Shown: one piece after another, positions 17,741 to 28,700 of the stretch
Numbering within the stretch: position 1 is the stretch's first letter
Layout: the number at the start of each line of letters is the position of its first letter
DNA from: Pseudanabaena mucicola str. Chao 1806
GTDB lineage: Bacteria > Cyanobacteriota > Cyanobacteriia > Pseudanabaenales > Pseudanabaenaceae
NCBI RefSeq assembly: GCF_030323025.1
Contig: NZ_CP097329.1
Location: 1,085,001 to 1,149,000 of the forward strand
Length of the DNA: 64,000 nt
Direction of reading: 5' to 3'
Notes under the pieces: generated by a model
The model's database searches: none
What the model saw: the letters and a program-made list of their open reading frames with translations, nothing else
Told to the model about the DNA's origin: nothing
Position numbers and translations under genes: made by a program

Positions 17741-17754
17741 AAAGACATAACCTA

Positions 17755-17855
17755 TAGCGGTTTTCATTTTGCCTACGGCAAAATGAAAACTCAAAACTCT
17801 TACTGGGACTGATTTTTTGTTTTCAAATGAGTGTGTACTCATTTGAAAACCGCTA
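17755..17855 (+). repeat. 101-bp MITE-like element, family B (copy 1)
   Basis: It begins TAGCGGTTTTCATTTTGCC and ends CATTTGAAAACCGCTA, flanked on both sides by TA (17753-54, 17856-57). Two internal hairpins are visible: TTTTGCC-tac-GGCAAAA and CAAATGAGTGTGTACTCATTTG. Copies of exactly the same length lie at 23138-23238 (inverted) and 27736-27836. TA flanks and terminal inverted repeats are typical of MITEs moved by IS630/Tc1-type transposases; none is present in the window. Confidence 0.88.
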
Positions 17856-17870
17856 TAGCTACTACTATAT

Positions 17871-23107: not shown

Positions 23108-23137
23108 AATCAAAAAAAGTCTTGCTGCGTTAAAATA

Positions 23138-23238
23138 TAGCGGTTTTCAAATGAGTGTGTACTCATTTGAAAACAAAAAATCAGTCCCATTAAGAGTTTT
23201 GAGTTTTCATTTTGCCGTAGGCAAAATGAAAATCGCTA
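23138..23238 (-). repeat. 101-bp MITE-like element, family B (copy 2, inverted)
   Basis: It starts TAGCGGTTTTCAAATGAG and ends GCAAAATGAAAATCGCTA, flanked by TA at 23136-37 and 23239-40. Same length as the other full copies. Confidence 0.87.
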
Positions 23239-23259
23239 TAAGCCCATAACCACTAGGGT

Positions 23260-25953: not shown

Positions 25954-26027
25954 CCCTTGGTAGCTCAGTTGGTAGTAGCGCCTGTCTGAAGAACAGGAGG
26001 TCGTCAGTTCAATTCTGACCTGAGGGG
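25954..26027 (+). tRNA. tRNA-Phe (GAA), divergent
   Basis: The acceptor stem CCCTTGG pairs with CTGAGGG (two G-T pairs). The anticodon stem CCTGT/ACAGG holds the loop CTGAAGA with anticodon GAA at 25988-25990. The T arm is GTCAG-TTCAATT-CTGAC. The D arm reads GGTAGTAGCG instead of the usual GGTAGAGCG, one base too long, and the discriminator is G rather than A. No CCA is encoded. It looks like an array-type, possibly poorly charged tRNA rather than the housekeeping copy. Confidence 0.82.
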
Positions 26028-26030
26028 CTT

Positions 26031-26069: not shown

Positions 26070-26077
26070 TTCAGTGT

Positions 26078-26150
26078 TGCCTTGTAGCTCAGTGGTAGTA
26101 GCGATCGCCTGTTAAGCGAGAGGTCGTAGGTTCAACCCCTACCAAGGCAG
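26078..26150 (+). tRNA. tRNA-Asn (GTT)
   Basis: The acceptor TGCCTTG/CAAGGCA is perfect, with discriminator G. The anticodon loop CTGTTAA has GTT at 26111-26113 on a four-pair stem plus mismatch. The T arm is GTAGG-TTCAACC-CCTAC. It has the same GGTAGTAGCG D-arm insertion as the neighbouring tRNA-Phe. No encoded CCA. Confidence 0.87.
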
Positions 26151-26151
26151 T

Positions 26152-26195: not shown

Positions 26196-26267
26196 CCGAG
26201 TGTGGCGCAGAGGTAGCGCGGCTGCTTTGGGAGCAGAAGGTCATAGGTTCAATCCCTATCACTTGGA
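26196..26267 (+). tRNA. tRNA-Pro (TGG)
   Basis: The acceptor CCGAGTG/CACTTGG has discriminator A. The D arm is GCGC-AGAGGTA-GCGC. The anticodon stem GCTGC/GCAGA carries the loop TTTGGGA with TGG at 26228-26230. The T arm is ATAGG-TTCAATC-CCTAT. It folds normally and encodes no CCA. Confidence 0.9.
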
Positions 26268-26311
26268 TACAGCGCTAAGCGCTGAGAACGATTCAAGAAA
26301 AAATTGCTTTG

Positions 26312-27567
26312 CTGAGATCTTGCACCATTCCCAAAAGCTTTAAGTAGGAATGGGTTTGAGAACAATTTTAAAACCATAACGAGCAGCAATATCAGCATTA
26401 ATTCGGATGTATCGGAGGAGTTTTAACCAAAGGACAGAAGGGAATAAAACAGAAAGTGTCAAATCAGATGCAGCCTTCCAGTCCAAGACAGGAGGTGGCG
26501 ACCATTGAGTACTCCAGTGAGCCAAAAGATAAGCAATCAGAGATAGAATTAGCCAACGAAAAACTCCAAGTTTTGTAGACTGCCCAAAACAATGTAAACC
26601 AAAGCGATGTTTAATGGTTTTGAAAAATCCCTCAATCGCCCAACGCTTACGACCCAACATCACCAGATAAGCACCCGAATAAGGATGAGAAGAAATCACA
26701 AAGCGTAACTCTCGTTTGCTATCAGCTCTTTTGAGCCAGAACCAAGAGATGGTAAATGTGGTACTTAGCCCTTCGAGTAAAACTTGTTGCCCCCGTTTGC
26801 CATGACGATAAAGTTGTTTGACCGAACGCCCATCTTGAAGCTTACGATTGCAGCGTATGCCCACAACAACTCGCCAAGCCTTTGCTCGGACTGTATTTAA
26901 AAACTTGACTGTGCAAAACTCAGTATCAGCAAGAACAATTACTTTCCTGCCTTGGGTTAATCGCTTTGGCACTGTTCCCAACAATTTACAAGCTAAGTCT
27001 GATGGACTCGCATATCCCTTGCCGCGCCACACTCTAAAACTCCATGGTATTCGCCACTCACCGTAGACTAGATAAAGTAAGACTAGATGAAGTCCTCGCT
27101 TACCGTTGAGCATCCTTACCCATGGGGCTGAGCCGTCAGCCGTCGAGGTATTTAGATGCAAAAACTTGCCGCATTTTGTCAATGTGGTCAAGTCAATCAA
27201 GATCTTCAATGGACTCCCTTTGTATGGTCGATGCTGAGCGATTTGCTCTAAGATGATCTGACGGGTTATCCGAATCACTGACCGCGTAGACCAGTTATAG
27301 TGATTTTGAAACCGACTTAACGAACTGGCTGATTTTACTTGCGTATGTTGAGGTAAAGGATGTCCCTGCGCTTCGAGAAATAGTCCCAATATCGCATTCA
27401 GACTGGCTTTTTGATACACACTAGGCATAAAGCTCAGAAGGCTATAAACTAACCTTTGGGCGTGCTTAACGATGCTTTCCATATCGTTATTTAAATTAGT
27501 ACTACGCCCTTTTTTTCACATCTCTCGTCTTTTTGCAACCCCTTTTTAGAATGGTGCAAGATCTCAG
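26312..27567 (-). mobile_element. Complete IS4-family-like insertion sequence inside the tRNA array
   Basis: A 1256-bp element with perfect 19-bp terminal inverted repeats (CTGAGATCTTGCACCATTC) and a probable 4-bp target duplication TTTG on both sides. It encodes one full-length transposase (26340-27482, minus). The flanking bases form the two arms of a hairpin (ATTCAAGAAAAAATTGC / GCAAATTTTTCTTGAATT), so it landed in the loop of a tRNA-spacer palindrome. It appears recent and intact. Confidence 0.9.
26340..27482 (-). CDS. IS4-family-like DDE transposase
   Basis: A 380-residue transposase with the DDE residues of IS4 relatives: first Asp in LKILIDLTTLTKCG, second in KVIVLADTEFCTVKF, and the Glu in a YREK-like helix (RKRWAIEGFFKTIKHRFGL). 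The basic N-terminal region (VIRITRQIILEQIAQHRPY) probably binds the ends. The frame is uninterrupted and lies between intact inverted repeats, so the element should be able to move by itself. The subgroup cannot be fixed without a search. Confidence 0.92.
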   Translation of the reverse strand: MESIVKHAQRLVYSLLSFMPSVYQKASLNAILGLFLEAQGHPLPQHTQVKSASSLSRFQNHYNWSTRSVIRITRQIILEQIAQHRPYKGSPLKILIDLTTLTKCGKFLHLNTSTADGSAPWVRMLNGKRGLHLVLLYLVYGEWRIPWSFRVWRGKGYASPSDLACKLLGTVPKRLTQGRKVIVLADTEFCTVKFLNTVRAKAWRVVVGIRCNRKLQDGRSVKQLYRHGKRGQQVLLEGLSTTFTISWFWLKRADSKRELRFVISSHPYSGAYLVMLGRKRWAIEGFFKTIKHRFGLHCFGQSTKLGVFRWLILSLIAYLLAHWSTQWSPPPVLDWKAASDLTLSVLFPSVLWLKLLRYIRINADIAARYGFKIVLKPIPT

Positions 27568-27598
27568 TTTGCAAATTTTTCTTGAATTGAAAAAGCTA

Positions 27599-27675
27599 TG
27601 CAGGGATGGAGCAAGGGAGGCTCTTGAGACTCATAACCTCAAAATCGGCAGGTTCAACTCCTGCCTCTGCAACCA
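27599..27675 (+). tRNA. tRNA-Met (CAT), with encoded CCA
   Basis: The acceptor TGCAGGG/CTCTGCA has discriminator A followed by CCA in the DNA (27673-27675). The D arm is GAGC-AAGGGAG-GCTC. The anticodon loop CTCATAA has CAT at 27632-27634; the stem TGAGA/CCTCA has one A-C mismatch. The T arm is GCAGG-TTCAACT-CCTGC. CAT could also be a lysidine-type Ile tRNA. It is the first tRNA after the inserted IS. Confidence 0.83.
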
Positions 27676-27726: not shown

Positions 27727-27902
27727 GCTGGTGTATAGTGGTTTTCATTTTGCCTACGGCAAAATGAAAACTCAAAACCTTTAATGGGAATGATTTTTTG
27801 TTTTCAAATGAGTACACACTCATTTGAAAACCGCTATAGCTCAACTGGCAGAGCATCTGTCTTGTAAACAGAATATTACAGGTTCAATTCCTGTCATCAG
27901 CT
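27727..27902 (+). tRNA. tRNA-Thr (TGT) split by a 101-bp repeat element
   Basis: The 5' acceptor strand GCTGGTG plus TA is at 27727-27735; the rest of the molecule resumes at 27837 with TAGCTCAACTGGCAGAGC. Joined, they give a clean tRNA: acceptor GCTGGTG/CATCAGC, D arm GCTC/GAGC, anticodon stem TCTGT/ACAGA around CTTGTAA (anticodon TGT), T arm ACAGG-TTCAATT-CCTGT, discriminator T. The gap is exactly one family B element with TA duplicated. Unless the element is removed from RNA or tolerated as a hairpin, the gene is inactive. Confidence 0.85.
27736..27836 (+). repeat. 101-bp MITE-like element, family B (copy 3), inside tRNA-Thr
   Basis: TAGTGGTTTTCATTTTGCC ... CATTTGAAAACCGCTA, flanked by TA at 27734-35 and 27837-38. 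Same length and orientation as the 17755 copy. It separates the 5' acceptor strand of tRNA-Thr from the rest. Confidence 0.9.
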
Positions 27903-27910
27903 TGAAACCT

Positions 27911-27943
27911 GTAATGGAAGTTTCCTATGGCAACTTCCATTAC
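27911..27943. repeat. Spacer palindrome after tRNA-Thr
   Basis: GTAATGGAAGTT-tcctatggc-AACTTCCATTAC, a 12-bp perfect stem. Confidence 0.8.
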
Positions 27944-28053
27944 TTAACTAATTTAAGGAGAACGATCATGTTGCATTTTTACTCGCCAGATTTCTTGCAA
28001 TTTTTTTACTTCATTATCAGCTTTCAGAATTCCGTTATTAGATATTTGAGATT

Positions 28054-28559: not shown

Positions 28560-28563
28560 ATTT

Positions 28564-28635
28564 GGGAATGTCGCCTAATGGAGGGGCATCGATCTTCTAA
28601 ATCGATCTGTGTAGGTTCGAGTCCTACCATTCCTG
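28564..28635 (+). tRNA. tRNA-Arg (TCT)
   Basis: The acceptor GGGAATG/CATTCCT has a G-T first pair and discriminator G. The anticodon stem TCGAT/ATCGA has the loop CTTCTAA and TCT at 28596-28598. The T arm is GTAGG-TTCGAGT-CCTAC. No encoded CCA. It is the last tRNA of the array. Confidence 0.9.
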
Positions 28636-28649
28636 TTTTGCGATTTAAT

Positions 28650-28700
28650 AAGGAACTGAATTTTTAGCGTGGCAAAGCCACGCTAAAAATTCAGTTCCTT
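28650..28700. terminator. Large hairpin closing the tRNA array
   Basis: AAGGAACTGAATTTTTAGCG followed by TGGCAAAGCCA and the exact complement: a stem of over 20 bp with a 3-nt loop. Confidence 0.85.

What the first reader, a model, noticed from the sequence alone, without database searches (positions are those of the whole stretch)
27727..27902. A 101-bp TA-flanked element is inserted inside a tRNA-Thr gene
The 5' acceptor strand GCTGGTG lies left of the element and its perfect partner CATCAGC ends the tRNA right of it; with the element and one TA removed the cloverleaf is complete (anticodon TGT). The element matches two other intergenic copies of exactly 101 bp, also between TA dinucleotides. 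The tRNA is therefore either dead or carries a large hairpin insertion at position 8/9. An RNA-level removal of such an element would be new.
Basis: partly seen in the sequence, partly recalled or inferred. Interest (0 to 1): 0.8.

Follow-up and report, generated by a model that had tools for sequence, protein, structure and literature searches.

The report
Transposon fragment inside spare tRNA gene
A common 101-bp piece of "jumping DNA" has landed in a spare copy of a threonine tRNA gene in the cyanobacterium Pseudanabaena; the cell keeps an intact copy elsewhere, so this is an ordinary broken spare and there is no sign that the insert is removed from the RNA.

Summary
At 27727-27902 a tRNA-Thr(UGU) gene is split after nucleotide 7 by a 101-bp element with a TA on each side. 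Seven other Pseudanabaena genomes have the same tRNA uninterrupted, with one TA, so this is a real insertion with TA duplication. The element is a high-copy MITE (67 forward and 65 reverse exact end motifs in the genome). Its ends match a 1,022-bp IS630-family insertion sequence in a congener, the likely parent.

The tRNA belongs to a small accessory tRNA cluster (Phe-Asn-Pro-Met-Thr-Arg). The genome has an intact tRNA-Thr(UGU) elsewhere. The same insertion occurs in a second genome of the species (about 99.3% identical flanks), with both tRNA halves unchanged. The interrupted copy carries G46A relative to all intact orthologues. The RNA is predicted to keep the cloverleaf arms, but the insert's terminal helix absorbs connector nucleotides 8-9.

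Best explanation: a dispensable tRNA gene inactivated by an IS630-type MITE. RNA-level removal has no support, though RNA data would be needed to exclude it formally. Novelty is low.

The parts
27727..27733 (+). 5' acceptor strand (nt 1-7) of the interrupted tRNA-Thr(UGU)
   Evidence: Sequence; identical to intact orthologues
27734..27735 (+). Left copy of the duplicated TA target
   Evidence: Empty sites in 7 congeners have a single TA
27736..27836 (+). 101-bp IS630-type MITE: terminal inverted repeats TAGTGGTTTTC / GAAAACCGCTA
   Evidence: High copy number; four differences from the copy consensus
27741..27771 (+). Left hairpin of the MITE (GTTTTCATTTTGCC-TAC-GGCAAAATGAAAAC)
   Evidence: Fold
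27800..27831 (+). Right hairpin of the MITE; its outer half matches the end of the parent IS630
   Evidence: Fold; comparison with L168
27837..27838 (+). Right copy of the duplicated TA target
   Evidence: As for the left copy
27839..27902 (+). Remainder of tRNA-Thr(UGU), nt 10-73, carrying G46A relative to all 7 intact orthologues
17753..17857 (+). Second copy of the MITE in the window (TAs included)
23136..23240 (-). Third copy of the MITE in the window (TAs included)
25954..26028 (+). tRNA-Phe(GAA) of the accessory tRNA cluster
26077..26151 (+). tRNA-Asn(GTT) of the cluster
26196..26267 (+). tRNA-Pro(TGG) of the cluster
27599..27675 (+). tRNA-Met(CAT) of the cluster (weak Rfam tRNA score, 31.6 bits)
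28563..28636 (+). tRNA-Arg(TCT) of the cluster

Best explanation
A non-autonomous IS630/Tc1-mariner-type MITE, moved in trans by an IS630 transposase, inserted into the TA at nucleotides 8-9 of a redundant tRNA-Thr(UGU) gene in an accessory tRNA cluster of Pseudanabaena and duplicated the TA. The insert inactivates that copy: its terminal helix takes up the 8-9 connector that the tRNA core needs, and a 103-nt arm is added. The cell tolerates this because an intact tRNA-Thr(UGU) is encoded elsewhere. Shown: the insertion, the TA duplication, the parent family, the redundancy, and sharing by two strains. Inferred: loss of function, and transposition in trans.
For: Empty orthologous sites with one TA in 7 congeners, in the same Phe-Asn-(Leu)-Pro-Met-Thr-Arg order. 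The element is present in high copy; 9 of 24 aligned copies equal the consensus. A 1,022-bp IS in a congener has ends TATAGCGGTTTTCAAATGAGC that match the MITE right end over 20 nt, and encodes DDE_3 and HTH_Tnp_IS630 domains and an NCBIfam IS630 transposase. Transposase remnants in this genome carry the same ends. Intact tRNA-Thr(UGU) at C1:781790-781862, 70.5 bits, also in the sister strain. The cluster is itself variable: Leu missing here, Lys in place of Thr in three congeners, a 1.26-kb IS added in this strain, and no match to this Thr gene in about half of the congeners. G46A only in the interrupted copy.
Against: Both tRNA halves are otherwise undecayed and identical in the two strains, and the RNA alone is predicted to keep all four cloverleaf arms. 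Neither is strong: the strains differ by about 0.7%, so about 0.5 change is expected in 73 nt.
Confidence: 0.95

Rival explanations
1. The split tRNA is still made and works as a tRNA with a large fifth arm at position 8/9, without removal.
For: The MFE fold of the 177-nt RNA keeps acceptor, D, anticodon and T arms with the element as a closed side arm, -66.8 kcal/mol, z -8.5; most of that z must come from the MITE's own palindromes, which every copy has.
Against: TA/TA pairing extends the terminal helix so that nt 8-9 are paired and no connector remains for the U8-A14 contact; G46, used in the 13-22-46 triple, is changed; the gene is redundant; with 100 nt of flank on each side the predicted fold loses the D and T arms.
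Confidence: 0.03
2. The element is cut out of the transcript and the tRNA halves are joined, an intron-like removal at RNA level.
For: Exact TA repeats and a closed helix would bring the two junctions together; both halves are intact in two strains.
Against: None of 24 other copies tested lies in an ORF restored by removal. The element is fully explained by DNA transposition. No need for removal exists because of the second gene.
Confidence: 0.01
3. An assembly error or chance placing of two partial tRNA genes around a repeat.
For: Only the repetitive nature of the element.
Against: The same arrangement is in a separately assembled genome of the species, and 7 orthologous empty sites exist.
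Confidence: 0.01

Closest known systems
MITEs of the IS630/Tc1-mariner superfamily (ISY100 is the studied cyanobacterial IS, PMC2170065)
   Same: TA target with duplication, short terminal inverted repeats shared with an IS630 element, no coding capacity, high copy number, hairpin-forming
   Different: Two internal palindromes give it a three-way-junction fold; this copy lies in a tRNA gene
MITEs that disrupt genes in Anabaena sp. 90 (PMC3542288)
   Same: Cyanobacterial MITEs, mostly intergenic, some making pseudogenes
   Different: Those were called type II (no matching IS in the genome) and disrupted ORFs; here the matching IS630 was found and the target is a tRNA gene
Accessory tRNA operons of cyanobacteria (trn operon of Anabaena PCC 7120, PMC10272220)
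   Same: tRNA genes clustered apart from, and redundant with, the housekeeping set
   Different: Here 6-7 genes on the chromosome against 26 on a megaplasmid; kinship and regulation not tested

Membership tests
IS630-family MITE | Insertion at TA with duplication of TA | tested here: met
   Empty sites with one TA in 7 orthologues; all 25 full-length copies matched are flanked by TA
IS630-family MITE | Terminal inverted repeats shared with an IS630 element | tested here: met
   TATAGCGGTTTTCAAATGAG at both ends of the 1,022-bp IS in L168 and at the MITE right end; the MITE left end shares TATAGCGGTTTTCA
IS630-family MITE | The partner IS encodes an IS630 transposase | tested here: met
   DDE_3 and HTH_Tnp_IS630; NF033545 at 123.6 bits, cut-off 100, for the C-terminal ORF
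IS630-family MITE | Short, non-coding, multi-copy | tested here: met
   101 bp; 67 + 65 end motifs in the genome; matches in all 26 genomes of the genus searched
IS630-family MITE | Mobilised in trans by the IS transposase | not testable with these tools
   Needs a transposition assay
tRNA intron (self-splicing or enzyme-spliced) | Known intron structure (group I/II) or anticodon-loop position | tested here: not met
   No Rfam intron match in the window; the insert lies at 7-9/10, not in the anticodon loop
tRNA intron (self-splicing or enzyme-spliced) | Removed from the RNA with joining of the exons | not testable with these tools
   No RNA data
Accessory tRNA cluster of cyanobacteria | Genes redundant with housekeeping tRNAs | tested here: met
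   Phe, Asn, Pro, Met, Thr and Arg genes with the same anticodons found elsewhere in the genome
Accessory tRNA cluster of cyanobacteria | Co-transcription and induction by translational stress | not testable with these tools
   No expression data

The most novel reading that the evidence does not exclude
The 101-nt element is tolerated or removed at RNA level so that the split tRNA-Thr remains functional, making a transposon act like an intron in a bacterial tRNA.
Probability: 0.02. Interest if true: 0.85.

Novelty: new member of a known kind. Interest (0 to 1): 0.15.

Why it matters
It is a clean example of a MITE landing exactly in the 8-9 connector of a tRNA gene and of the erosion of an accessory tRNA cluster, and it ties a very abundant Pseudanabaena repeat to an IS630 parent. 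It needs no new mechanism. If RNA data did show a functional product, a transposon would be acting as a tRNA intron in a bacterium, which is why a cheap RNA check is still worth naming.

Tried and rejected
Only-copy hypothesis (essential tRNA, so the insert would have to be removed): rejected, an intact tRNA-Thr(UGU) exists in both strains. Decay test by strain comparison: uninformative, the only other carrier is about 99.3% identical. Search for copies inside ORFs that would imply RNA-level removal: none among 24 others tested; five more loci had diverged ends and were not tested. A first consensus of the copies was wrong because they lie on both strands; redone with orientation. The 2.1-kb and 1.4-kb spans between end motifs were examined as possible parents: one holds an unrelated gene, the other an unrelated transposase gene next to a MITE lacking its left end. 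A scan of viral contigs with the element end found nothing.

Full report
What is there. The window lies in a 4.53-Mb Pseudanabaena chromosome (the genus is named through records that hold the orthologous tRNA). At 27727-27902 the sequence reads GCTGGTG, TA, a 101-bp element, TA, and then GCTC...CATCAGC-T. Joined over one TA this is a complete tRNA-Thr with anticodon TGT. ARAGORN does not report it; Rfam reports only the 3' part at 50.4 bits, against 71.7 for an intact orthologue.

It is an insertion. Seven congeneric genomes carry the same tRNA without the element and with one TA at that place, 71 of 72 positions identical, in the same gene order. The one difference is in the variable loop: G46 in the intact genes, A46 in the interrupted one. 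A second genome of the same species has the identical insertion; its flanks are 99.3% identical over 1,767 bp, both tRNA halves are unchanged, and the element has two substitutions. The insertion is therefore older than the split of these two strains, and an assembly error is excluded.

What the element is. It is a MITE: 101 bp between TAs, with inverted terminal repeats and two internal palindromes. The end motif occurs 67 times forward and 65 times reverse in the genome, with none for the reversed control. Of 24 full-length copies aligned in one orientation, 9 equal the consensus, and the tRNA copy differs from it at four positions. In a congener (G039) seven near-identical transposase matches were found; the copy read in full lies in a 1,022-bp IS with ends TATAGCGGTTTTCAAATGAGC. 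Its two overlapping ORFs match HTH_Tnp_IS630, DDE_3 and the NCBIfam IS630 transposase. This fits the IS630 mechanism, insertion at TA with TA duplication, shown in vitro for ISY100 (PMC2170065). Two transposase remnants in the window's own genome carry the same ends.

What the tRNA is. It belongs to a cluster Phe-Asn-Pro-Met-Thr-Arg. In most relatives examined the cluster also holds Leu(TAG), and in three relatives the Thr place holds a tRNA-Lys(TTT). Genes with the same anticodons are encoded elsewhere in the genome, including an intact tRNA-Thr(UGU) at C1:781790-781862; the sister strain has it too. The cluster recalls the accessory, stress-induced tRNA operon of Anabaena (PMC10272220), but that kinship was not tested.

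What it most likely does. The 177-nt RNA alone is predicted to fold as the cloverleaf plus a large arm. However, TA pairs with TA, so nucleotides 8 and 9, which normally connect the acceptor and D stems and contact A14, are drawn into the arm's helix. Together with the loss of G46 this argues for a dead tRNA (inference from general knowledge of tRNA structure). With 100 nt of flank on each side the predicted fold loses the D and T arms. None of the 24 other copies tested sits in an ORF restored by its removal, so there is no sign that the cell removes the element from RNA.

Verdict. The part of the interpretation that would need new biology is not supported. It is a redundant tRNA gene broken by an IS630-type MITE.

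Noticed in passing
L113:101-221 (G000:C1:1554832-1554952): A 121-nt tRNA-like gene with good acceptor, D and T arms but extra sequence around the anticodon/variable region; Rfam tRNA 43 bits, no ARAGORN call; found at 90-97% identity in 15 other congeneric genomes and in no other genus searched.
   Followed up: partly
window 27921-27945 and 28650-28700: Hairpin loops are flipped between two strains of the species: GGAAGTTTCCTATGGCAACTTCC against GGAAGTTGCCATAGGAAACTTCC, and GTGGCAAAGCCACGC against GTGGCTTTGCCACAC. MITE copies show a similar TAC/GTA loop flip.
   Followed up: no
window 26307-27570: A roughly 1.26-kb insertion with a DDE_Tnp_1 transposase gene between tRNA-Pro and tRNA-Met, absent from the sister strain.
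   Followed up: partly
L099, L100, L101: In three congeners the Thr position of the tRNA cluster holds a tRNA-Lys(TTT) that is 86% identical to the tRNA-Thr, suggesting a change of tRNA identity.
   Followed up: no
L149, L151, L152: Single-hairpin versions of the element, about 46 bp between the same TATAGCGG ends, each containing only one of the two palindromes.
   Followed up: no
L158 around 1416: An IS630 remnant whose end is fused to most of the MITE, a possible clue to how the MITE arose.
   Followed up: no
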